Virus record (IMG/VR): IMGVR_UViG_3300035701_000193
Coordinates: 1 to 30,132 of that record
Length of the DNA: 30,132 bases
Source: a virus
Strand: one strand, 5' to 3'
Shown here: positions 4,600 to 27,476 of the stretch, piece after piece
How the letters are laid out: each line of letters starts with the position of its first letter
How positions within the stretch are numbered: the stretch's first letter is position 1
Made by a program: the position numbers and the translations under genes
The notes under the pieces: model-generated
Told to the model about the DNA's origin: nothing
Database searches by the model: none
The model's input: the letters and a program-made list of their open reading frames with translations, nothing else

Positions 4600-6403
4600 T
4601 TGTTTTCTCCACATGGACTCTATTCGGAATAAGTCCTTTTAGGGTTTCTTCGTTGCTTACTAGAAAGATTGTACTTTTAATCTTTGCTAGTTCCTCCTTC
4701 AAGTATGAGATGACAGATTCACTGTTTCTATCATCAAGACCTACGAAGGGTTCGTCCAAGATTAGCAAGTTGCTTCGCGATTTTACTTGAGTAGCAGCCA
4801 AATCCGCTAGGGCGAGCCCCACAGAAAAGTCTACCATCTGCTGCTCTCCTCCCGAGAGTAGAGAATAAGATCCTCCACCCGTAGAAGATAAGGCGGTAGC
4901 AGAAAATTCCTCTTTGGTCGAGGAGTCTTTGAGCTGCGCCACGGTTGAAAAGTTTACCGTAATCTGTGCATTGTTCAAGGCTTGTAGATGATGGTTAGCC
5001 CTTTCAGACAGGAAAGGACATACCCTATCGTAAAGAAGCAGTCTTAGATCTTTGGAATATGCTTTCTCCCACAGAAGAACGGACTCCTCCTCCTCTATAA
5101 TTATCATCACTTTTGCTTGAAACGCTGAGACTGCGAACTTGTGTGCTGCAATCGTACTATCAATGTCTACCAGGGTTTGAACATAAGGATTTGTTGAGGC
5201 CACAATTGCACATAGCTGCTCTTCAATTTGTTTAATCTTGCTTGTACTCTCTTCCTCCCCCAATTCTACAAGTCGTGAAACCATTTTATCATATGTGGCT
5301 TTGACTTTTTTCCATTCATTGATGTTTGCAGTGTTGAGTTCCATTATGGTGATGCAAACGTCAATGCTATTTTCCAATGACTCTTTCTCAAAAAGCAACC
5401 TCAACATTCTAGCTTGGTTGTGTGACTTCTCTGCTTCTGGAATAATGACTGCCTGCTTGCAAGTAGGGCAGGTTGAATCATCAACCATAGTCCGAAGAGT
5501 ATAAAGCTCCGTATTAGCAATATGAGATTCTGCCTTGTGGGTTGCAATCTTTGTAGATAACTTAGCGTTCTCTTGGAGCGTATTCATAATTCGCTTGTCA
5601 AAAGAACCCATGTCCCATTCAGTAGTTATCTTAGTAAGTTGCTTTTTGATGGTTTCAATCTCGACTTTTTCCGGAGATAGTCTTAGAATGTTCACTTCGT
5701 TGGTTAGCTTCTTCGTCGTGTTGGCCTTCTGAAACTCCCATGCAGCGTGCTGCCTCTCGATACTAGAACGCTGCGCCTGAAGCGCCCCCTGAGCCGCCAG
5801 GGCCTTATTTACTTCTATCTCCGCAGCCAACTTCACCGTGGCGACTTCTCGCTTCGCGAGCTTAGTATTCGCTAACCATTCGTTCAAATGTTCAAAAGGA
5901 AGAATTCGTTCCAGCACCTCCTTCTGTCCTGACGGAGACAGCTTCATAAAAGGAAAGCTGTTTCCCTGTCCAAAGAAATCTGTCTGGATAAACGAATTGA
6001 TATCTCTACCGATGGTGCGGTTAATCATCTCTTGGGTCGAGCGCACGTCACGAGTGGATATGCTTTTCCCATTTTGAAAAAAGTCTAGTTTAGTTACTCC
6101 TTTTCTAGTACGAGTTCTTTCAATCCTATATGTGACTTTGCCAATCCTAAATACCAGGGTAGCACTGCCATCTGTTGCCTCTAGGCGGCGGTTAAGAACT
6201 TCGTCGGACTTCAGTCCTTCCGCAGTTTGACCAAATAGCGTCCAGAGTAAACTTTTGTTAATAAGGCTACTCTTACCAGAACCATTACTAGACCCTTCAT
6301 CGAGGGATCGTCCTGTAACTAGGACAAGGCCCTTATTGTTTAGATCGACAGCGAATGAGGCAAACGAGAATAGCCCGATTCCGCTAAGACTTAGGAACTT
6401 CAT
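4574..6403 (-). CDS. SbcC/Rad50-like recombination ATPase (T4 gp46 type)
   Basis: 609 residues with the split-ATPase layout of Rad50. The N-terminal Walker A is SSNGSGKSS (38-46), a Q-loop-like FFGQGNSF lies near 143-150, and long helical arms flank a zinc hook CPTC (312-315). At the C-terminus are the signature LLSGGEQ (515-521) and Walker B LLILDEP (546-552). It works with the SbcD-like nuclease encoded just upstream (20-base overlap) to process double-strand DNA ends, as gp46/gp47 do in T4 recombination-dependent replication. It is much shorter than bacterial SbcC (over 1000 aa), as is usual in phages. Confidence 0.93.
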   Translation of the reverse strand: MKFLSLSGIGLFSFASFAVDLNNKGLVLVTGRSLDEGSSNGSGKSSLINKSLLWTLFGQTAEGLKSDEVLNRRLEATDGSATLVFRIGKVTYRIERTRTRKGVTKLDFFQNGKSISTRDVRSTQEMINRTIGRDINSFIQTDFFGQGNSFPFMKLSPSGQKEVLERILPFEHLNEWLANTKLAKREVATVKLAAEIEVNKALAAQGALQAQRSSIERQHAAWEFQKANTTKKLTNEVNILRLSPEKVEIETIKKQLTKITTEWDMGSFDKRIMNTLQENAKLSTKIATHKAESHIANTELYTLRTMVDDSTCPTCKQAVIIPEAEKSHNQARMLRLLFEKESLENSIDVCITIMELNTANINEWKKVKATYDKMVSRLVELGEEESTSKIKQIEEQLCAIVASTNPYVQTLVDIDSTIAAHKFAVSAFQAKVMIIIEEEESVLLWEKAYSKDLRLLLYDRVCPFLSERANHHLQALNNAQITVNFSTVAQLKDSSTKEEFSATALSSTGGGSYSLLSGGEQQMVDFSVGLALADLAATQVKSRSNLLILDEPFVGLDDRNSESVISYLKEELAKIKSTIFLVSNEETLKGLIPNRVHVEKTNGISQIVA

Positions 6404-10958: not shown

Positions 10959-13636
10959 TACGCCTCCGTTACTTTGTTAGTCTTTGATTCGGCTTCGGCC
11001 CATGTTTTCCCAATACCCAGATCAACTGTAAAGACCCTACCTCCAAGTTCGGGGATGGGCCGCTCTGCCGTTGTCTTCATAAGAGATAAAGTCCAAGCTT
11101 GAAGCTTCTCGTGAAACTCTGTCATCAACGAGTCATGCACTGTATTGACAATGCGCACATGGGATCTCTTGAGTTGACCCTGTTCCCGAAACTTCTTTAT
11201 CTGTCGGTGCATAATGCTCATTGTATCAATCGTAATTTGCGCAGCAGGCGACTGGACGGTGAAGTTGACCAGCTCTCGTTCTGCCTTGCCTCGCTTCTTA
11301 GGATCTCTACTGTTCAGAGCATCCCCCATATGTCTCTCTCGTCCCATCACACTAATGAAAGTATTATCTTGCTTCCTAGTCAGGTCTGGGATCAAAGCCA
11401 TATACTCTCTAACTGAAGGATACATGTTGTGAAAACGATTGATCCCCATGTTGACGGTATCCCAGGTCATGGAATACTTCTGCCCCTTCAGCCCTTCATA
11501 TTCTTTACCAACTAGGTCATACCCAGATGACCCGAAGATAGCACCAAAGTTGAATGTTTTCCCTACATCTCTATTTAGGGGGCTAACCAAATCCTCGGGG
11601 ATCTCAAGCAAGATTGCAGCCATCGTTCTATGTGCGTCAGACTTGGGATCGAAGAAGATGTCTACGAGCCGGTGATCTCCTGTCAGCAGATAAATGAGAA
11701 CCGCATAGACCTTTAGTTCAATTTGTTTATAGTCCATGTACCCAAAGAGGCAGTCTTTTCCAGCCACAAACAGATCCCTAAGGTTGTGAATGCCACTCTT
11801 AGTAGCCTTGGGGACTTGGTGTAAGAACGAACAAGAGAGGCGTCCAGATTCAGTTCCGTGAAGCATGAAACTTTTACGAATTCGACCGTCAGGATCTAAC
11901 TCTGTTAGGGCGCTTTCAAGGTAGGTTGAAATCATCTTCCTGTTGGTACGATACTGTAGAATGTCCCCAGCTATCGGCCACTTTTGAGAAAGATCAAGCA
12001 GCACTTCCTTGCCTGTAGACCACCCAGATGACTTACTAAGGTCTGATATGGCATCCGAATGTCCATCTTTAATGGCGGCATTTCGTACATCTACGGTGCT
12101 CATGGGGTTGAATAAAGGGTTGCATGTTTTGGCCTTAAGAGAAGATAGGATTCGGGCCTGTTCTTTTTCATAGTCAGTTTTGTATTGGATCGTCAGATCT
12201 TTATCCATCTGGATGCCGTCATCTTCAACATCTACTAGAGCTTCAAGGGCAGGTTGAACCCTATCAATATAGAGAGAGTAGAGTTGAGGGTTCTTGTTCA
12301 TTACCCTTTCAAGGATCTTGAAGTTGTAGACACAGGCTAGCCTAAACACGTTTTCTGCATCGATAGCTGCATACGGACAGAAGATATGGTGGGGTATGCA
12401 GTCGTACCCCTTAGCATGGCCTATATCTTCTACTTTCGAGTTATATGAACCAATGGCAAACTCAAGGTCCGCTAAGTATTTGAGATCATGAGGTTTTTGC
12501 TCCCTAATCAAGTGATGAAGAAGCATAGTGTCGTATAATGTGCCTTTAAGATCCGACCCTGCCCACTTGCGGATGACATGCCAGTCATACTTCAGATTGT
12601 GAGCAGCCTTGACTATCTTCTCATTTTCAAAGATGTGCGTCTTTAGCTCACTGAAGAGGTAATCCAAAGGAGCCCGATGTTTGCTAGTTCCCCAGAAAGG
12701 CTCCACATGCCATCCTAGGGCATTAGGAGTAGGAGAATGGTGGTAGATGGGAAGGACAGCGGTTTGCTCTCCAGGCCGATCATATCCCCAACAAAAGCTC
12801 ATCATAAGCATAGGCTCTCGGTGAGCAGGAAGGGACCGTGACTCTGTATCAAAGGCAACTAACGGTGCCTCTTTCATTTCCGCGATCATCTCGTTAAACT
12901 GCTTCGTAGTCTTGATAAGACGGAACTTGTTCTTAGGCTTTGCAACCTTCACAGCATCTCCACGAACCATGTCTGCGGCCAGGATATAATCATCAAACAT
13001 CCGTTGTTCTGCTACGGGGTCGTTCTTATAGAAGAACATGCTAGGATGGAACGTAGGAATCACTTTGAATGTCGGGCCGTCTTCCCAATCAGGGAGCTTC
13101 ACATTGAACACCTTGCCACGATTCTTGAAGATACCCCCCTCATTGTGCAAGTTGAAAGCTCGCATCGTAGTAGAGCCGACAAGCATGACCACTTTGGGTT
13201 GTGCCTTTTCTAGCTCATGCCTAAAGTGAACCAAGCAAGCCTTACTCTCCGTTAAGGAGGCTTTGCGACCCTTAGGAGGGGCGCACTTAACCATATTGGT
13301 TATGTACACTTGAGAAGATGCAAACCCTGCCTGTGCAATGCAGTTCGTTAAGCGGTCTGCCAGGGAACCTGCAATGGGAAGGTTTCGCTTGTCTTCTTCA
13401 TCTGTGATCCCCTCCAAAAGAATAACTACATCGTATGTTCTACCAACCGCACTTCCTCTGTTCGCAGGCGCCCACCCACGTTTGGTAGTCTGGTAGTTGT
13501 AGAAGATGTCAAAGGGGATACCTTTGAGTTCGACTTGCTTATTCTCGATTAAGCACCCAAGAGCGCATTTCGGTTTACAGCCTACCCCCTTGCAGGAGGA
13601 GTAAGGTTCTACAACTTTGTCTTTAGTCTTCGCCAA
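10958..13636 (-). CDS. DNA polymerase family A fused to N-terminal family 4-type uracil-DNA-glycosylase domain
   Basis: About 892 residues from a TTG at 13636 with AAAGGA eight bases upstream. An in-frame GTG at 13726 has no good binding site and would lie deep in the membrane-protein gene. The first 230 or so residues look like an iron-sulfur UDG: clustered Cys near the N-terminus (CKGVGC, CALGC), LLEGITDEED, NMVKCAPP with a second Cys 16 residues on, and FHPSM. Next is a 3'-5' exonuclease (FDTES, NLKYD, YAAID). The polymerase has motif A MDYKQIELK, motif B R-x3-K-x3-F (NRDVGKTFNFG, then FG not YG) and motif C VHDS where most have VHDE. It replicates the genome and may sense or remove uracil. 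Confidence 0.93.
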   Translation of the reverse strand: MAKTKDKVVEPYSSCKGVGCKPKCALGCLIENKQVELKGIPFDIFYNYQTTKRGWAPANRGSAVGRTYDVVILLEGITDEEDKRNLPIAGSLADRLTNCIAQAGFASSQVYITNMVKCAPPKGRKASLTESKACLVHFRHELEKAQPKVVMLVGSTTMRAFNLHNEGGIFKNRGKVFNVKLPDWEDGPTFKVIPTFHPSMFFYKNDPVAEQRMFDDYILAADMVRGDAVKVAKPKNKFRLIKTTKQFNEMIAEMKEAPLVAFDTESRSLPAHREPMLMMSFCWGYDRPGEQTAVLPIYHHSPTPNALGWHVEPFWGTSKHRAPLDYLFSELKTHIFENEKIVKAAHNLKYDWHVIRKWAGSDLKGTLYDTMLLHHLIREQKPHDLKYLADLEFAIGSYNSKVEDIGHAKGYDCIPHHIFCPYAAIDAENVFRLACVYNFKILERVMNKNPQLYSLYIDRVQPALEALVDVEDDGIQMDKDLTIQYKTDYEKEQARILSSLKAKTCNPLFNPMSTVDVRNAAIKDGHSDAISDLSKSSGWSTGKEVLLDLSQKWPIAGDILQYRTNRKMISTYLESALTELDPDGRIRKSFMLHGTESGRLSCSFLHQVPKATKSGIHNLRDLFVAGKDCLFGYMDYKQIELKVYAVLIYLLTGDHRLVDIFFDPKSDAHRTMAAILLEIPEDLVSPLNRDVGKTFNFGAIFGSSGYDLVGKEYEGLKGQKYSMTWDTVNMGINRFHNMYPSVREYMALIPDLTRKQDNTFISVMGRERHMGDALNSRDPKKRGKAERELVNFTVQSPAAQITIDTMSIMHRQIKKFREQGQLKRSHVRIVNTVHDSLMTEFHEKLQAWTLSLMKTTAERPIPELGGRVFTVDLGIGKTWAEAESKTNKVTEA

Positions 13637-13857
13637 AGTAGGTATCCTTTTGTGTCGATATAGATGAAGGGTATTGCCCAAACCCAGATAGAAGTCATCC
13701 CCATATAGAGTCCCACCACGGCCCACCCAGTTTCACCTGCGAGACGTAGCAACCAGCCTACTTCGCGTTTCTTGCTAATCATCACCATTCCGAGGAAAAT
13801 AAGCAAGTAAAATAGATGACCTAACCCGTCGAGGATAAGCCTTTCAGTTGTCGGCAT
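13609..13857 (-). CDS. Small membrane protein, two to three helices
   Basis: 82 residues from ATG 13857 with GAGG five bases upstream. Hydrophobic stretches HLFYLLIFLGMVMI (about 14-27) and WAVVGLYMGMTSIWVWAIPFIYI (about 45-67) are separated by a basic loop (SKKREVGWLLRL), and the tail is basic (LLWRRLKTKL). It overlaps the primase end by 37 bases and the polymerase start by 28. The layout recalls small PnuC-like or phage conserved membrane proteins, but this is a weak resemblance. A membrane protein between primase and polymerase could anchor replication to the membrane (inference). Confidence 0.75.
   Translation of the reverse strand: MPTTERLILDGLGHLFYLLIFLGMVMISKKREVGWLLRLAGETGWAVVGLYMGMTSIWVWAIPFIYIDTKGYLLWRRLKTKL
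13645..13650 (-). promoter_or_regulatory. Ribosome binding site deciding the TTG start of the polymerase
   Basis: AAAGGA on the transcribed strand lies eight bases before TTG 13636. No comparable site precedes the upstream GTG at 13726. This start leaves a 28-base overlap with the membrane-protein gene, which is normal for this genome. Confidence 0.6.
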
Positions 13858-14735
13858 ACGTCCCTCACATTTATGTTGCGAGAAGATCCTAGTCTTGCTA
13901 TTGCGACTATTTCCCTGATAAACTCAACCGGATAATCATCAGGTTGTCCTATGATGTTTATAAACTTGGAATTGATTCCGTGCCTACGAAGTTTTTGAAT
14001 TCCTACTTCAGCCTTGTAGATAGCATCGCCATCCCAAAGGAAAATGACTTCTTTCACTTTTGATCGAGCAATCAGCCCTACCTGTGCATCTGATAGGTGG
14101 GAACCAAAGTTGGTCGTACAGTTTACTTCGTTCCGTAACCAAATGGATACAAACGTGTTTTCTACTAAGGTCATCCATGTCCAGTCTTGCTCGTCCCACC
14201 CGAACAAGAAGTTCGTTACTGACACCCCCTTAGCATACTTGTATTTCATCCCGTGGTCGTTAACGTCATATAGTCTGGCAATGTACTGTACAAGGTTCCC
14301 CTTAGAATAGATCGGGACATAGATCCTCTTGTAGTTCGCCAGGATGCCCCAGTGATAGATCTGTTCTGGAGTAAGCTTTCTCTTATTGAGCCAATTGTAA
14401 GCATCAAACATTCTAGTAGTATAGTTTGTTTGGTTTAACTCAATCACTGGATGGACATTCTTAGGAAGGGCCACGAGAGGCTTGTGCTCCACAACAACCT
14501 GCGGGACGGGCGTCCATCCTACATCAGAAGGTTCGGACCCCCAATGCTCTGCTAAAGCTTTGAGAGAAGGCTTCCAATGGCAACTAGCCCGGTGGCAGAA
14601 TCCCACCCCCTTACTCATGTTGAAGTAGAATTGAACGTGGTCGCACTTAGGGCATTTCATATGTACTTCGGAACCAATAACCAAGGTAACCATTCCTTGT
14701 TTCCGAAGCCACGCGAGTATGTTAGAATTGTTCAA
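13821..14735 (-). CDS. DNA primase (zinc finger plus TOPRIM)
   Basis: 304 residues. An N-terminal zinc ribbon (CPKC at 28-31, then FCHRASCH) is followed by a linker and a TOPRIM-like core: VENTFVSIWLR (catalytic Glu) and IFLWDGDAI (DxD). The helicase domain found in T7-type primase-helicases is absent, and a separate DnaB-like helicase is encoded at 17750-19216. It makes RNA primers for lagging-strand synthesis. It starts at ATG 14735, overlapping the phosphoesterase by 14 bases. Confidence 0.87.
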   Translation of the reverse strand: MNNSNILAWLRKQGMVTLVIGSEVHMKCPKCDHVQFYFNMSKGVGFCHRASCHWKPSLKALAEHWGSEPSDVGWTPVPQVVVEHKPLVALPKNVHPVIELNQTNYTTRMFDAYNWLNKRKLTPEQIYHWGILANYKRIYVPIYSKGNLVQYIARLYDVNDHGMKYKYAKGVSVTNFLFGWDEQDWTWMTLVENTFVSIWLRNEVNCTTNFGSHLSDAQVGLIARSKVKEVIFLWDGDAIYKAEVGIQKLRRHGINSKFINIIGQPDDYPVEFIREIVAIARLGSSRNINVRDVCRQLKGLSSTG

Positions 14736-16829: not shown

Positions 16830-16977
16830 CACTTCTCCCATGCTCAACGAGGTAGTCTACTCGCTGTGCCTCTAGTTCAGTAATCTTTTCGTCTTTGATA
16901 GTTTTGAGTTGTTTTTCGATTAGCCCAACAAGCTTATCCTGAATCTCCGCAAGCTGTTCGAATGTTTTAGAGTCCAT
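16819..16977 (-). CDS. Small helical protein, 52 aa
   Basis: ATG 16977 follows GGGAGG by six bases, a strong ribosome binding site, and the frame ends with TAA at 16819, overlapping the next start by 11 bases. The protein is a single charged helix (MDSKTFEQLAEIQDKL... KITELEAQRVDYLV) and could be a short coiled coil. Function unknown. Confidence 0.7.
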   Translation of the reverse strand: MDSKTFEQLAEIQDKLVGLIEKQLKTIKDEKITELEAQRVDYLVEHGRSDEV

Positions 16978-17062
16978 GTCTATCCTCCCAAAAGTTAAAG
17001 GCTACTAAAACTATAACCAATATAAGCAAACCCTCAGCAATGAGTGAAAGGATATGTTCCAT
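16967..17062 (-). CDS. Single-pass membrane peptide, 31 aa
   Basis: ATG 17062 overlaps the upstream stop as TAATG, and the frame ends at 16967 within the next gene. The peptide has one hydrophobic segment (SLIAEGLLILVIVLVAFNF) followed by a charged end (WEDRHGL). Translation would rely on coupling, since a separate binding site is poor. Very short phage membrane peptides of this type are common but their roles are rarely known. Confidence 0.5.
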   Translation of the reverse strand: MEHILSLIAEGLLILVIVLVAFNFWEDRHGL

Positions 17063-17265
17063 TACTCTAGGTTCTTTGACCAAAGCTTATGGATGGTATA
17101 GGCTGCCCGTGTGAGGGCTTCCACCATACGAGCTGCCTCACTTTTTGAGGTAATGACTGCACTAGAGTTACCGTAAAGATCAATTTCAATAATCGGATCA
17201 TCGATCAAATTCTGTGTTTTTCTAAACCGAATACATGTTTGATCTGAAATGATGCTAGCTGCCAT
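17062..17265 (-). CDS. Hypothetical protein, 67 aa
   Basis: Starts at ATG 17265 behind AAAGGAG, about 25 bases after the end of a potential structured RNA leader (17290-17388). It is the first gene after the only long non-coding gap. The protein alternates beta strands (IIEIDLYGNSSAVITS) with a C-terminal amphipathic helix (EAARMVEALTRAAYTIHKLW). No family recognised. Confidence 0.75.
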   Translation of the reverse strand: MAASIISDQTCIRFRKTQNLIDDPIIEIDLYGNSSAVITSKSEAARMVEALTRAAYTIHKLWSKNLE

Positions 17266-17289
17266 GTTGTTCTCCTTTTGATTAGGGTG

Positions 17290-17388
17290 GAGAGTCTGAA
17301 GGGGCTACCGAGGAGTCGGCTCTACTCGCTGTTAGAAAACTTGCTCAGTAGTATAATGTACGTAGTACATAGACCCCTCCAGACTCTC
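17290..17388 (-). ncRNA. Candidate structured RNA leader (four-helix fold)
   Basis: On the transcribed strand the ends pair over about 18 bp: GAGAGTCTG with CAGACTCTC, continuing through a G-T pair and AGGGG/CCCCT, then one bulged T and CTA/TAG. Inside are TGTAC-TAC-GTACA, CTACT...AGTAG, and CCGA-CTCC-TCGG, giving a cloverleaf-like junction with short linkers. The G-T pair would be an A-C mismatch on the opposite strand, so the fold favours the transcribed strand. It ends about 25 bases before the start of the next gene, so it may be a cis-regulatory leader or a small RNA. No known class recognised. Confidence 0.5.
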
Positions 17389-17492
17389 TCTCGTCACTTC
17401 GTTCCTTCGTTTTTTCTTTCTTTATCGATTTTTTTTTCGTTTTTGTGTTTCTGTGTTAGTAGTGTGTTGTTTGTTGTGTTAGTTTATCTTTC
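17389..17492 (-). other. A-rich, T-poor low-complexity intergenic tract
   Basis: Between the stop of the 85-aa gene and the structured RNA, the transcribed strand is almost free of T and largely A with C, then A with G (runs such as CGAAAAAAAAATCG and AAAGAAAGAAAAAACG). I see no gene or clear promoter in it. It might be an unstructured leader, an easily melted origin element, or a protein-binding tract. The helicase gene lies just upstream. Confidence 0.6.
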
Positions 17493-17750
17493 TTATTTGT
17501 CGCTATTTTGGGGTCGGTCAGACTGCTCTGCCGCCTTGCTTCGCGATGCCTTATTATCACCATTTCCTTGAACTTTTACAAGTGGAACCAAAATCATGAG
17601 TCCCCGTTTGGACTTAACCCATTTTTGAACATCTTCGATATTCTTGCCCAAAGTCCACTTTAGAATAGGGGCAGCCTTAATGACAATTCCATCCTCGCTT
17701 AGTAAGCCAGCACAGAAGTAGCCAACATCGATCTTCCATAACTCAGACAT
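17493..17750 (-). CDS. Hypothetical protein, 85 aa
   Basis: ATG 17750 overlaps the DnaB-like helicase stop as TAATG. The N-terminal part is a small alpha/beta unit (KIDVGYFCAGLLSEDGIVI, then WVKSKRGLMILVPLVKVQ). The last 25 residues are polar, Asn/Ser/Lys-rich and probably disordered. Its position makes it a candidate helicase partner, but no motif supports this. Confidence 0.7.
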   Translation of the reverse strand: MSELWKIDVGYFCAGLLSEDGIVIKAAPILKWTLGKNIEDVQKWVKSKRGLMILVPLVKVQGNGDNKASRSKAAEQSDRPQNSDK

Positions 17751-19216
17751 TACTTTCTCCCTTGGTACTTCCCCTTACTGTTTTTACGCTGCTGCGCTGT
17801 CATGCCTGAAGATGTGGTAGCCGCATGCTGGACTGTAGGCGTGCCCGAGGGCGTTGCCGATCCTGAATTGTCCACCTGATCTGTTGCAAGAACTTGCGCA
17901 ACATTGTTCGTTATATTCATCTTACTCAAATCTGCCTCAAGGATTACAGAGTCAAAGCTAAGCTTGCTCTGTCGTTGCTTGAGATTGAAAAACTGTATAC
18001 CTACTTTACCTGTCTTATCTCCATCTACGATCTTCCTTTGCTTCAAGGCGATACATGCTGTAGCTTCCTGAATATGCCGAATAGAAGATTGAACGTGGGT
18101 TAGGTCAAGCTCTTCTGCTGACGCTCCTCCACGGTTAGTCTGTACCGCAGTCCAAATGATAATGTTGTGACGTTTCGCCAAACTTACTAGGTCTTGGGCA
18201 ATGAATTGCATGTTAGACCACTCATTATCAATCTTCGGTCTTCCCCTGCTCATATCAGGCTTCATGCGTTCCATGAAGTCGAGCACAATCACTTCGGGCA
18301 TGAACCCGTAAAGATTTCGATTCCTAATCATTTCATCTTCGATGTCGGCTGCTGAAATGGGCGGTCGGACGTATTCAGTGATGAAGAACTTGTTATCGAG
18401 CCGATTCATCTTCCACTGGCGAGATAGTTTGCCTAGCCCCATAGCCGGGGCATCGATGATGTCAGTCAGGCCAACTCCACTTAGCCTAGAGAGCATTCGC
18501 TCTGTGGTTTCGTACAAGCTTAGCTCGTTTGTTACCAGCCAAACCTTCCTGTCCTCGTTTCTGCTCATTCTATCTGCAATGTTAATCAAGCATGCACTCT
18601 TACCATGACCTGTGACGCCCACGATGATTCCTAATTGTTTAGGTCTTAGTCCCCCACCACACCAGATGTCAACAATGTTGATCCCTGTAGGCACTCTCTG
18701 GAGCATTGGAGTAAACCCATCAGACTTCACTAGAGACTCTACTGCTTCACGGAGGTTCATCGTTTTGCGGTCTGTGGTGCTCTCGAAACGCCTCTGTAGC
18801 GAGTTAATCTGCTTCAGGATCTCTGCCCCGTCTGCCTCCTCGATCGCCCGTTGTACGCCAACATCCTCTGTCATTTGCTTAAAGGCTCTCACTGTAGCTA
18901 CGTCTTGTGCCTTATCCAAAGTCCAGGCGATCTCGGCCTTGTCTACGTTCTTATCGTAATTCTCGATCTCGTCTAAGACTTCCTTGATCCTAGCCTCGTA
19001 GATCATTACATCCTTTTGCTTAAAGATTACCCTTAGTATTTTGATACTAGGGGGGAGAAGGTGCTTCTTGAGGAAGTGCCGCATCTCCTGAAAGACATAG
19101 CCACACTCAGCACGATCGAACCAGTCTTCGTGGTACGATGCACAGAACTTTTTGCAATCCTCCTCTCTCAAAAGGAGAGAGTAGAGGAAGACAATCTCGT
19201 CAAACTTGGGCTCCAT
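17750..19216 (-). CDS. DnaB-like replicative DNA helicase
   Basis: 488 residues. The N-terminal 160 residues are helical, as in DnaB-family loader or primase-contact domains. The RecA-like motor follows: Walker A GVTGHGKSA, Walker B VIVLDFMER, and a later IRHIQEATACIALKQR with the arginine-finger-type region near KQRQSKLSFD. It should form a hexamer that unwinds the replication fork with the separate primase (13821-14735). The Ser/Thr-rich C-terminal tail ends in a basic NSKGKYQGRK. Start ATG 19216 behind GGGAG. Confidence 0.9.
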   Translation of the reverse strand: MEPKFDEIVFLYSLLLREEDCKKFCASYHEDWFDRAECGYVFQEMRHFLKKHLLPPSIKILRVIFKQKDVMIYEARIKEVLDEIENYDKNVDKAEIAWTLDKAQDVATVRAFKQMTEDVGVQRAIEEADGAEILKQINSLQRRFESTTDRKTMNLREAVESLVKSDGFTPMLQRVPTGINIVDIWCGGGLRPKQLGIIVGVTGHGKSACLINIADRMSRNEDRKVWLVTNELSLYETTERMLSRLSGVGLTDIIDAPAMGLGKLSRQWKMNRLDNKFFITEYVRPPISAADIEDEMIRNRNLYGFMPEVIVLDFMERMKPDMSRGRPKIDNEWSNMQFIAQDLVSLAKRHNIIIWTAVQTNRGGASAEELDLTHVQSSIRHIQEATACIALKQRKIVDGDKTGKVGIQFFNLKQRQSKLSFDSVILEADLSKMNITNNVAQVLATDQVDNSGSATPSGTPTVQHAATTSSGMTAQQRKNSKGKYQGRK

Positions 19217-20653
19217 TTATCTCCCTACTTTTACAGTAGTTACTTTGAATCCTTCGTCTGTCCATGTCGCGAGTCGCTGCTTAGAGTGCTTCTCTAGGAT
19301 CTTCGGGTTCATGTCGTAGAAGTCCACTACTTCAACCGCATCCTTACCAACTGCCCGACGAAGCCCTCTTCCTAATCTTTGGATAGACCTTATCTCACTC
19401 TTCTTCCCTCCAGCTAGGATAAGGCTTCTTAGGTTGGGAATGTCCAGTCCTTCATCAAAGATTGTTGAAGCGATCATGAACGGAACCTTACCTTCCTTAC
19501 AAGCCTGAATCCATTGTAGTCTTTCTTCCTTGGAAGTATCCCCTCTAACAAACGGAACATCCCGCATCAGGTGTTTCTTCATTAGCCCTTGGATAAGATC
19601 CCCATGTCCGATTTGGTCTACCATGATAAGGCAGGGCGTCGGTAGCGCCGCTGCCTCGTTAACAATGTGCATGTTTCTTTCTTTGTTCAACATAATTCCA
19701 TGCTCATAGCAAGTCGGCCAACGATTCGGAGTTTGCCAGTCAGCTCGTACTTCGATCATCTTGATATTGGGAGGAGATAGGTGCCCCTCCTCAATCAGCT
19801 TCTCACTTCTAATCGCATATACGACGGGTCCGGCCACTCCCTCCAAAATCCAGTTTGAAAACTTGTCCTTACGGAACGCTGTACCCGTAAGTGCCCACCT
19901 CATATATGCACTACTGAACAGATTGCATACACCAGCGAAAGTATTTACCGAATCAATCTTGCTGGCTAGAGTATGTGCTTCGTCATAGAATAGTTGCTGT
20001 ACATCTTGTATCCAATCTAGCCGGTCCAGATCTCCTGCTTTTTTAGCTGAATGAAGCGTTTGTACCGAGGCAACCGTAACTTTTTTGGGGTTACATACTC
20101 CTGCACTTAGACGCCCTGCGTCAATTCCTAGCTTCTTGAATTCGGCAATCGTCTGATCCAGTAGGTGCTCACGATGAACAATGAAAGCCGTGGGCACATC
20201 GGTCATAGTAATCATGGCCCCGGCAGTCAGGGTCTTTCCTCCACCCGTAGCGATTTCGATGACGCCTCTCGGCCACCATGTTTCGCCGAGCTTATTTCCG
20301 AAGGCAGCAAGGACGGCTTCTTTTTGGTAATCCCTTAGCATTTCCGGTACCTTACCAAAGGTCATGAACTTTAGTCCCCTCTTATCAATTAACTCAACAT
20401 CGCACTTTAGTAACTTCAGCCGCTCACACGCATAGGGAACTAGACCAGCAGGGATCTTGCCATACTGCATCATTGTGACTCTTCCATTCCATCCTGCCTT
20501 CCCTCCCGTCCGTTTGAATAGTTTGTATTGAGGCATATGAATCGCTGTCTCTAGAAAGATGTCGAACTCTTTCTTGAGTTTTTCTAGGGCCTTAGCATCC
20601 TGTCCATTGTCAGGTGCAAAAGCAGCAGAGATGTTATCGAACACTATTTTCAT
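19217..20653 (-). CDS. Superfamily 2 DNA helicase, UvsW/SSL2-like
   Basis: 478 residues with superfamily 2 motifs in order: LRDYQKEAV (Q-motif area), IATGGGKT (I), FIVHREHLL (Ia), FYDEAHTL (II, DEAH), LTGTAFR (III), and IQRLGRGLRR (VI). The N-terminal 110 residues form a small extra domain, as in T4 UvsW, which remodels branched recombination intermediates and R-loops. In T4 it switches replication from origin-driven to recombination-driven, and the same job fits here given the UvsX and gp46/47-like genes. Start ATG 20653 behind GGGAG; a 20-base overlap with the upstream gene. Confidence 0.9.
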   Translation of the reverse strand: MKIVFDNISAAFAPDNGQDAKALEKLKKEFDIFLETAIHMPQYKLFKRTGGKAGWNGRVTMMQYGKIPAGLVPYACERLKLLKCDVELIDKRGLKFMTFGKVPEMLRDYQKEAVLAAFGNKLGETWWPRGVIEIATGGGKTLTAGAMITMTDVPTAFIVHREHLLDQTIAEFKKLGIDAGRLSAGVCNPKKVTVASVQTLHSAKKAGDLDRLDWIQDVQQLFYDEAHTLASKIDSVNTFAGVCNLFSSAYMRWALTGTAFRKDKFSNWILEGVAGPVVYAIRSEKLIEEGHLSPPNIKMIEVRADWQTPNRWPTCYEHGIMLNKERNMHIVNEAAALPTPCLIMVDQIGHGDLIQGLMKKHLMRDVPFVRGDTSKEERLQWIQACKEGKVPFMIASTIFDEGLDIPNLRSLILAGGKKSEIRSIQRLGRGLRRAVGKDAVEVVDFYDMNPKILEKHSKQRLATWTDEGFKVTTVKVGR

Positions 20654-23866: not shown

Positions 23867-24366
23867 TTGATTTTGTTCAATGTGGCGAATTCTTTGAACA
23901 CTTCGGCTGCCGCCTTGTTATACATGAGTCCTGCTTCCTTCTCGTCATCAAACAGTCCAAGGTGCTTTAGCTTTCTGTCAATGACAATGTAGCATCTCCA
24001 CTTCTCATGCTTCTTAGACCAAGAGACTCCCTTGTACTTGGAGCTAGTCCCCTTACGCTTGCCCTTGTTCGCATTGTTTTGCGTTCGGTTAGCCATTCTC
24101 AAGTTGCTGCGTCTACAGTCTAGCTTGTCCTGATTAATATGGTCAACGAGTTCGTCCTTCTTTAGAGAGCGGCCGATTAGCTCTTCCATAATCAAAGTAT
24201 GTAGCCATACTCGCTGCCGCATTCCCCCGATGGTGGTGCGCATACAAGCATAGTTGCCGCTCTTACTGCCGTGGGCAGTCCAGCTACCCAGGCTCATAAC
24301 GTCAGCATCTTCCTCTGAAATTTTGGCCCAGAGTCCGTTTCCAAGTTTAAGGTCTATATGGCTCAT
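23863..24366 (-). CDS. HNH homing-type endonuclease with AP2 DNA-binding domain
   Basis: 167 residues. An HNH core at about 70-105 (ELVDHINQDKLDCRRSNLR, then RTQNNAN) is followed by an AP2 domain at about 112-155 (YKGVSWSKKHEKWRC, HLGLFDDEKEA). This pairing is typical of free-standing phage homing endonucleases that cut a related genome and spread into it. Unlike its neighbours it has its own sigma-70-type promoter directly upstream, plus AGGAGG before ATG 24366. The four-base overlap with the patatin gene suggests an old or well-fitted insertion. Confidence 0.9.
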   Translation of the reverse strand: MSHIDLKLGNGLWAKISEEDADVMSLGSWTAHGSKSGNYACMRTTIGGMRQRVWLHTLIMEELIGRSLKKDELVDHINQDKLDCRRSNLRMANRTQNNANKGKRKGTSSKYKGVSWSKKHEKWRCYIVIDRKLKHLGLFDDEKEAGLMYNKAAAEVFKEFATLNKIK

Positions 24367-26474: not shown

Positions 26475-27476
26475 CTATGCCTCCTCAAAGAATGCTAGGA
26501 GTTCCTTTAGTTCAAACCGTTCACTTAGCTTTTTCAAAGCCACGTCTTCAATCTGTCGAAGGCGCTCCCTCGTCAGTGCAAAGTTCATGTACTCACTTAC
26601 TTCTTGATAGGTGAGAATCTTGCCGAAGGATAGGTATCTAATAAAGATAACCTCTCCCTCCTGCTCTGTCAAGTATCTACCAAGAGCCTCCTTCAGTGAC
26701 TCTCTAATCAAACTCCTGTCTACATTCTCTTCTAGGGTCGGCCCATCATCAGGGATCATGTCTGCTAGGCTTCGCTGCCTTCCTACGTCTACGTTTTCCT
26801 CTAGTGAGAACCAACTACCCGTCCCATCCTCTACCTCAGCCGAGTGGGGAATGTGAACCATTCCAAAAGGGTCTTCCATTAGCTTCTGTTTCATCTTGAA
26901 GTGAATCTTATGATGCGCATAAGTACAGAATCGAACGCCCATTACCGGGTCAAACTTCTTAGCTGCCTCAACTAGCGCAAGGTTCGCAACTTGTACCGCA
27001 TCTTCGTGCGCCAGTCGGCCCCGGTATTCCATAGCCAAACGAACCGCCATCTTAAGACACGATAGCACAAGCTTCTGCTCGATCTTATCTGCTTGTGCTT
27101 TGAAAATTTCAATAGCAAAAGCCGAATGGGTATCTACCCGTAGCCAACTTAGCAGCTTGAAAAGCCACTCCATTCTGAAGTTACAAAGGTGAAGGTTCGC
27201 CTTTGTAGGCTCTACAAGAATCTCTGTGACCCTTTGTTCTACATCCGAGTTATTGCCTTGCTTATTACTATTGAAGTCGTTAGTCACCGAGGCAACCGAC
27301 GTAAGCCTCTTTACCTCGTCTACAATAAGCCCCGGCATTCCATCTACTGAAAAGATTTCTTCTCGTAGTGAAAAACGAATGTTAGATAATGAGTTCACTA
27401 ACTCACGTTCTTCTTCTCTTTCGATATTCTCCTGATAGTTCCCAACGTCTTCGTAATACTCTTTGAATGATCCCAT
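26475..27476 (-). CDS. Sigma-70-family RNA polymerase sigma factor
   Basis: 333 residues. Region 2 lies at about 143-200 (VRLAMEYRGRLAHEDAVQVA, FDPVMGVRFCTYAHHKI), a region-3-like stretch MVHIPHS follows near 207, and region 4 at about 265-320 holds the HTH (TYQEVSEYMNFALTRERLRQ with IEDVALKKL). The first 130 residues are not sigma-like and may carry a phage-specific function. It should direct host RNA polymerase to phage middle or late promoters, whose sequence is not evident here. Start ATG 27476 behind GGGGG. Confidence 0.9.
   Translation of the reverse strand: MGSFKEYYEDVGNYQENIEREEERELVNSLSNIRFSLREEIFSVDGMPGLIVDEVKRLTSVASVTNDFNSNKQGNNSDVEQRVTEILVEPTKANLHLCNFRMEWLFKLLSWLRVDTHSAFAIEIFKAQADKIEQKLVLSCLKMAVRLAMEYRGRLAHEDAVQVANLALVEAAKKFDPVMGVRFCTYAHHKIHFKMKQKLMEDPFGMVHIPHSAEVEDGTGSWFSLEENVDVGRQRSLADMIPDDGPTLEENVDRSLIRESLKEALGRYLTEQEGEVIFIRYLSFGKILTYQEVSEYMNFALTRERLRQIEDVALKKLSERFELKELLAFFEEA

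What the first reader, a model, noticed from the sequence alone, without database searches (positions are those of the whole stretch)
17290..17388. Potential four-helix structured RNA just upstream of a small gene
The transcribed strand can form an 18-bp closing stem with one bulge, enclosing three hairpins (TGTAC-TAC-GTACA, CTACT...AGTAG, CCGA-CTCC-TCGG) with very short linkers. One pair is G-T on this strand but A-C on the other, which favours function in the transcript. It sits in the only long non-coding gap of an otherwise packed genome and ends about 25 bases before a start codon. It could be a cis-regulatory leader, a small RNA or a tRNA-like element.
Basis: partly seen in the sequence, partly recalled or inferred. 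Interest (0 to 1): 0.68.

Follow-up and report, generated by a model that had tools for sequence, protein, structure and literature searches.

The report
Structured leader RNA in unclassified phage
A roughly 100-letter stretch between two genes of an unclassified virus, probably a tailed phage, can fold into a strong multi-arm RNA that probably helps set how the following small genes are translated; it is real and matches no described RNA family, but its job is inferred, not shown.

Summary
The transcribed (minus) strand of 17290-17388 is the most stable 99-nt fold in the window (-45.3 kcal/mol, z -5.7), lies in its longest intergenic gap, and ends 25 nt before a start codon. The only close relative found (83-kb contig) keeps it: one compensatory pair (G-C to A-U), one G-U to G-C, no consensus helix broken apart from one end pair lost to a deletion. 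No Rfam family, tRNA or intrinsic terminator fits.

New: the RNA holds a 12-codon reading frame (MYYVHYTTEQVF) with a Shine-Dalgarno buried in the closing stem; the stem's 3' arm can alternatively pair with the next gene's Shine-Dalgarno. Best reading: a cis-acting intercistronic leader tuning translation (confidence 0.38). Rivals: RNase III/mRNA-stability stem, DNA-level origin, trans-acting RNA.

About 20 contigs with ~42% identical DnaB carry a different, also family-less, structured leader after dnaB. Covariance models do not link it to this RNA.

Evidence for selection rests on two sequences in a mosaic stretch, so function stays unproven.

The parts
17290..17388 (-). Structured RNA element (whole)
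   Evidence: MFE -45.3, z -5.7; most stable 99-nt fold in window; kept in G001 13481-13583
17374..17388 (-). 5' arm of closing stem GAGAGUCUGGAGGGG; contains the GGAGG of the 12-codon frame
17290..17304 (-). 3' arm of closing stem CCCCUUCAGACUCUC; its end UCUCC (17293-17289) can instead pair with the downstream Shine-Dalgarno GGAGA
   Evidence: alternative pairing
17356..17370 (-). Hairpin 1, AUGUAC-UAC-GUACAU (three-base loop; UAU in the relative)
   Evidence: In every predicted form of both sequences
17305..17351 (-). Switch region: either CUACUGAG/CUCGGUAG (8 pairs plus inner helices) or the two hairpins CUACU/AGUAG and CCGA/UCGG
   Evidence: -45.3 vs -45.2 kcal/mol in window, -40.4 vs -38.0 in G001
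17332..17370 (-). 12-codon reading frame AUG..UAA, MYYVHYTTEQVF, with GGAGG at 17380-17376
   Evidence: Same peptide in G001, single change synonymous; SD+AUG+frame arises in 0.3% of shuffles of the RNA and 1.4% of the gap
17394..17492 (-). A-rich, U- and G-poor unstructured segment upstream of the RNA, conserved in G001
17271..17277 (-). Downstream Shine-Dalgarno AAGGAGA
   Evidence: kept in G001 although another small gene follows it there
17062..17265 (-). First downstream gene, 67 aa, unknown family
17493..17750 (-). Upstream gene, 85 aa, unknown; follows DnaB-like helicase 17750-19216

Best explanation
A cis-acting intercistronic leader RNA of an early/replication-type operon in a probable tailed phage, which tunes translation of the small-gene cluster after it. 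Closed state: the 15-pair stem buries the 12-codon frame's Shine-Dalgarno and ties up the stem's 3' arm, leaving the next gene's Shine-Dalgarno relatively free. Open state: a ribosome on the 12-codon frame of the nascent RNA, or another factor on the 5' arm, frees the 3' arm, whose UCUCC can pair with the next gene's GGAGA and lower its translation. The two near-equal inner folds would set how easily it changes state. Shown: structure (computed), conservation in one relative, the short frame, the competing complementarity. Inferred: that it is transcribed, that ribosomes use the frame, and that translation is the output.
For: Strong fold on the transcribed strand in both sequences; compensatory G-C to A-U and G-U to G-C in the closing stem. 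Short frame with SD: 0.3-1.4% by shuffling, identical peptide in G001. Modelled accessibility of the downstream Shine-Dalgarno falls from 0.49 to 0.18 (window) and 0.32 to 0.19 (G001) when the 5' arm is occupied. Leader and Shine-Dalgarno are kept while the first gene after them differs. Relatives at ~42% DnaB identity also place strong folds just before the next gene's Shine-Dalgarno (z about -5 to -8 in 8 of 9), with an upstream CUCU able to pair with that Shine-Dalgarno.
Against: Only two sequences, in a mosaic stretch: four-fold sites differ by 3% in the upstream gene and 15% in the downstream gene, so 94% identity of the gap is not by itself evidence of constraint. The UCUCC/GGAGA helix is only 5 pairs, with a wobble in G001. 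The short frame was noticed after the fact; one synonymous change proves little. No convincing promoter in front (one search finds no clear excess over shuffles). No expression data.
Confidence: 0.38

Rival explanations
1. An mRNA processing or stabilising stem: a long duplex in the only wide gap of the operon is cut by RNase III, or shields the downstream mRNA from exonucleases, separating the helicase message from the small-gene message.
For: 15 continuous pairs that can stack on 8 more in the two-arm form; mid-operon position; independence from the identity of the first downstream gene. T7 early mRNAs are known to be cut at intergenic hairpins by RNase III (own knowledge).
Against: Does not need the short frame or the bistable interior; 15 pairs is short for an RNase III substrate and the longer stack is interrupted by hairpin 1.
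Confidence: 0.27
2. A DNA-level element, such as a replication origin: inverted repeat beside an A/T-rich tract, next to the replicative helicase gene.
For: 99-nt A-rich/T-rich tract beside an inverted repeat, close to DnaB; tract conserved.
Against: Folding energy is better on the transcribed strand in both sequences, as G-U pairs become A-C on the other; cumulative GC skew of the 83-kb relative shows no turn here, only at the gene-direction switch near 39-40 kb; pieces of the gap are not repeated elsewhere beyond chance.
Confidence: 0.13
3. A separate trans-acting small RNA released from the operon.
For: Compact, strongly folded, kept apart from the downstream gene's identity.
Against: No promoter clearly above chance and no terminator at its 3' end; the stem is followed by CACCCUAAUC, not U's.
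Confidence: 0.1
4. A decayed or rapidly changing leftover of the larger structured leader that relatives carry after dnaB, without a present role.
For: Same position after the dnaB region; relatives' leaders are diverse.
Against: Stem kept by a compensatory change and one repaired wobble; models of the relatives' leader find nothing here.
Confidence: 0.12

Closest known systems
Leader-peptide translational attenuators (ermC/tnaC type; own knowledge)
   Same: Short frame with its own Shine-Dalgarno inside a leader with mutually exclusive helices, one touching the next gene's Shine-Dalgarno
   Different: No known stalling motif or inducer; the downstream Shine-Dalgarno is partly free rather than firmly buried in the resting fold; nothing tested
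T4 genes e, soc, 49 and I-TevI RNA structures at translation starts (reviewed in PMC3014915)
   Same: Phage mRNA helix burying a Shine-Dalgarno and start codon
   Different: There the buried site belongs to the regulated gene; here the buried site is that of the 12-codon frame
[quoted passage not shown] PMC3014915)
   Same: Hairpin tens of bases before a phage start codon
   Different: The gene 43 operator is an 18-base hairpin bound by the polymerase; here a 99-nt multi-arm fold before a gene of unknown function, and the first gene differs between the two relatives
T7 intergenic RNase III sites (own knowledge)
   Same: Long hairpin between phage genes in one operon
   Different: Irregular long hairpins versus a 15-pair stem with a branched interior; no processing data
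The 300-400-nt structured leader after dnaB in relatives (L095-L121, L130, L139, L149, L150)
   Same: Place after dnaB, A- or purine-rich unstructured stretch, then strong stems just before the next gene's Shine-Dalgarno; hairpin core GUAYUAC shared by four relatives and this RNA
   Different: Relatives have a near-consensus promoter and a 5' domain that the window and its relative lack; covariance models do not detect this RNA

Membership tests
Any Rfam 15 family | Covariance-model score above the family's gathering cut-off | tested here: not met
   none; best chance hit 8.3 bits against a cut-off of 180
tRNA or tRNA-like | ARAGORN/RF00005 match, T-arm with conserved loop | tested here: not met
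   Searches find tRNAs elsewhere in the window but not here; the third hairpin loop is CUCC
Intrinsic terminator | G+C-rich stem followed at once by a run of U | tested here: not met
   Minus strand continues CACCCUAAUC; no hit at this stem on either strand
Leader-peptide attenuator | Short frame with Shine-Dalgarno upstream of the regulated gene, conserved as peptide | tested here: inconclusive
   Present in both sequences, 0.3-1.4% by shuffling, one synonymous change only (one search finds no further copies)
Leader-peptide attenuator | Mutually exclusive helices, one sequestering the downstream start | tested here: inconclusive
   Predicted shift in Shine-Dalgarno accessibility 0.49 to 0.18 and 0.32 to 0.19; small helix
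Leader-peptide attenuator | Ribosome stalling in response to a signal | not testable with these tools
   Needs toeprinting or ribosome profiling
RNase III processing site | About two turns of duplex, cleaved by RNase III | not testable with these tools
   15 continuous pairs plus a possible 8-pair stack; cleavage needs an experiment
Structured leader after dnaB of related phages | Match to a model of that leader's 5' domain or 3' domain | tested here: not met
   R2: no hit in window or G001; R3: best 5.5 bits, chance level

The most novel reading that the evidence does not exclude
The RNA is a far-diverged member of an undescribed class of long structured leaders that sit behind the replicative helicase gene in much of an unclassified phage lineage, keep their architecture while sequence and downstream genes change, and link ribosome traffic on a tiny leader frame to expression of the following small-gene module.
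Probability: 0.2. Interest if true: 0.62.

Novelty: new member of a known kind. Interest (0 to 1): 0.42.

Why it matters
If it works as proposed, it would be a compact, testable phage translation switch that belongs to no described RNA family, in a lineage with no close relative among the sequenced phages searched. It also points to a larger unrecorded set of structured leaders behind dnaB in about 20 related contigs.

Tried and rejected
Nucleotide search in annotated phages: no match. Searches with the 85-aa and 67-aa neighbours: only G001, or nothing. A model of the RNA found only its two sources (each on both strands) in 46 loci and nothing in 10 relative records; the L115/L128 hit (14.3 bits) lies on the other strand of a palindromic stretch and is not claimed. 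DnaB and loop-motif scans of 84,980 genomes: nothing. Tracts of the gap are not repeated elsewhere in either genome beyond chance. I first took the relatives' leader for a protein gene because frames are open in some; a one-base indel between close relatives (L096 versus L130) breaks the frame, so it is treated as RNA. RNAalifold gave no consensus for that leader on the 18-row alignment. A literature search on T7 RNase III sites returned nothing.

Full report
WHAT IS THERE. Genes around the site run on the minus strand, with the DnaB-like helicase (17750-19216, PHROG 19, E 3e-47) and an 85-aa gene of unknown family (17493-17750) upstream, and a 67-aa gene of unknown family (17062-17265) downstream. 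Between them lies the longest gap in my gene list, 17266-17492. Read on the transcribed strand it is an A-rich, nearly unstructured stretch, then the 99-nt RNA (17388 to 17290), then 24 nt with a good Shine-Dalgarno and the ATG of the 67-aa gene.

IS IT MORE THAN CHANCE. The minus strand folds at -45.3 kcal/mol, z -5.7, no shuffle of 200 as good; the plus strand is weaker, -38.9, z -4.1. It is the lowest 99-nt energy on either strand of the window, at 49% GC. Across the window plus the 83-kb relative, some stretches of the relative are lower. In the relative the two-arm form wins by 2.4 kcal/mol.

CONSERVATION. One close relative was found, IMGVR_UViG_3300031997_000620 (G001), 83 kb. Its version (13481-13583) folds with z -5.0. 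Across the two, the closing stem has one pair changed on both sides (G-C to A-U), produced by a base change in one arm and a one-base deletion in the other that shifts the register, and one G-U became G-C. A G-C became G-U in the inner helix and two loop bases changed; the changes do not break a consensus helix except that the innermost G of the 5' arm loses its partner to a deletion. This is encouraging but thin. Four-fold sites differ by only 3% in the gene just upstream, 15% in the gene downstream and 22% in dnaB, so the stretch is a mosaic and the 94% identity of the gap cannot be read as constraint.

A SHORT FRAME INSIDE THE RNA. The 5' arm contains GGAGG and, five bases further, AUG opens a 12-codon frame, MYYVHYTTEQVF, ending in UAA (17370-17332). 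The relative encodes the same peptide with one synonymous change. A Shine-Dalgarno-AUG-frame of this kind appears in 0.3% of dinucleotide shuffles of the RNA and 1.4% of shuffles of the whole gap. A search of 2.9 million viral contigs with all codons for that peptide found only G001. This is suggestive, noticed after the fact, and not proof of translation.

HOW IT COULD WORK. In the closed fold the frame's Shine-Dalgarno is fully paired (accessibility 0.00). If the 5' arm is held by a ribosome or another factor, the freed 3' arm (UCUCC in the window, UCUUC in G001) can pair with GGAGA, the Shine-Dalgarno of the next gene; modelled accessibility of that site falls from 0.49 to 0.18 in the window and from 0.32 to 0.19 in G001, although in G001 the predicted minimum uses a different partner strand. 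This gives a competition between the 5' arm and the next gene's Shine-Dalgarno for one strand. The helix is only five pairs, so the effect may be modest. A feedback loop specific to the first downstream protein is unlikely, because in G001 a 27-aa membrane-type peptide frame sits between the same leader and the homologue of the 67-aa gene.

WIDER CONTEXT. A pattern on a conserved DnaB motif brought in about 24 contigs with 40-48% identical DnaB and a later family scan a few more. In most of them dnaB is followed by a near-consensus promoter (TTGCAA or TGGCAA, about 17 bases, TATAAT or TATAAC) and a leader of roughly 300-400 nt with a conserved 5' domain. No Rfam family matches. In the outer stem of its central hairpin one column pair reads G-U, G-C, A-U or U-A in 18 of 18 sequences. 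The last 100 nt before the next Shine-Dalgarno fold at z about -5 to -8 in 8 of 9 relatives examined, against a mean of -0.3 in control windows within dnaB, and in the five aligned relatives an upstream CUCU can pair with that Shine-Dalgarno. Models of the 5' domain (R2) and 3' domain (R3) do not detect the window's RNA, and the model of the window's RNA detects nothing convincing in the relatives. A shared core GUAYUAC in a hairpin at the same place (four relatives and the window) is a lead only. So similarity of place and layout is shown; common descent is not.

VERDICT. A real, strongly folded RNA element with no described family, most likely a cis-acting intercistronic leader. The general statement that it acts in cis on the mRNA (translation or processing) I put at about 0.65; the specific translation switch at 0.38. 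The decisive missing evidence is more sequences from this sublineage and a reporter test.

Noticed in passing
L106:5646-6027, L107, L100, L110, L149, L105, L103, L095, L098, L099, L121, L117, L139, L097, L150, L130, L115, L096 (after dnaB): About 20 related contigs carry an undescribed structured leader of roughly 300-400 nt behind dnaB, mostly with a near-consensus sigma-70 promoter; conserved GAGGGAGG...ATG and a hairpin GGUUA..GUGCUAGAGGCAC..CUURCC whose outer pair covaries; no Rfam match. Possibly more interesting than the given finding.
   Followed up: partly
window 16967-17062 (-) and L003 4481-4564 (+): Tiny single-membrane-span peptide frames sit on different sides of the 67-aa gene in the two relatives (MEHILSLIAEGLLILVIVLVAFNFWEDRHGL after it in the window; MGFFIGFVIGSILVLLGMLVGLHMGRD before it in G001).
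   Followed up: no
window 24411-24383 (-), same in G001 6155-6183 (+): Clear promoter TTGACA-17-GATAAT before the gene at 24366; the weak candidate before the RNA (TTGTAA-17-GATAAT, 17581-17553) shares its second box but is no better than chance.
   Followed up: partly
window 26475-27476 (-), homologue L006:3090-4091: Phage-encoded sigma factor (PHROG 351, E 5e-26 in the G001 copy), so promoters of this phage may differ from sigma-70 consensus.
   Followed up: no
window 12792-14735 and 17493-20653 against G001: Sharp mosaic divergence from G001: four-fold sites differ by 3% in some genes and 49% in a neighbour, pointing to recent exchange.
   Followed up: no
G001 near 40.7-40.9 kb, 57.5 kb and 60.0-60.1 kb: The most stable 99-nt folds of the relative lie here (-47 to -57 kcal/mol), stronger than the RNA under study; not examined.
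   Followed up: no
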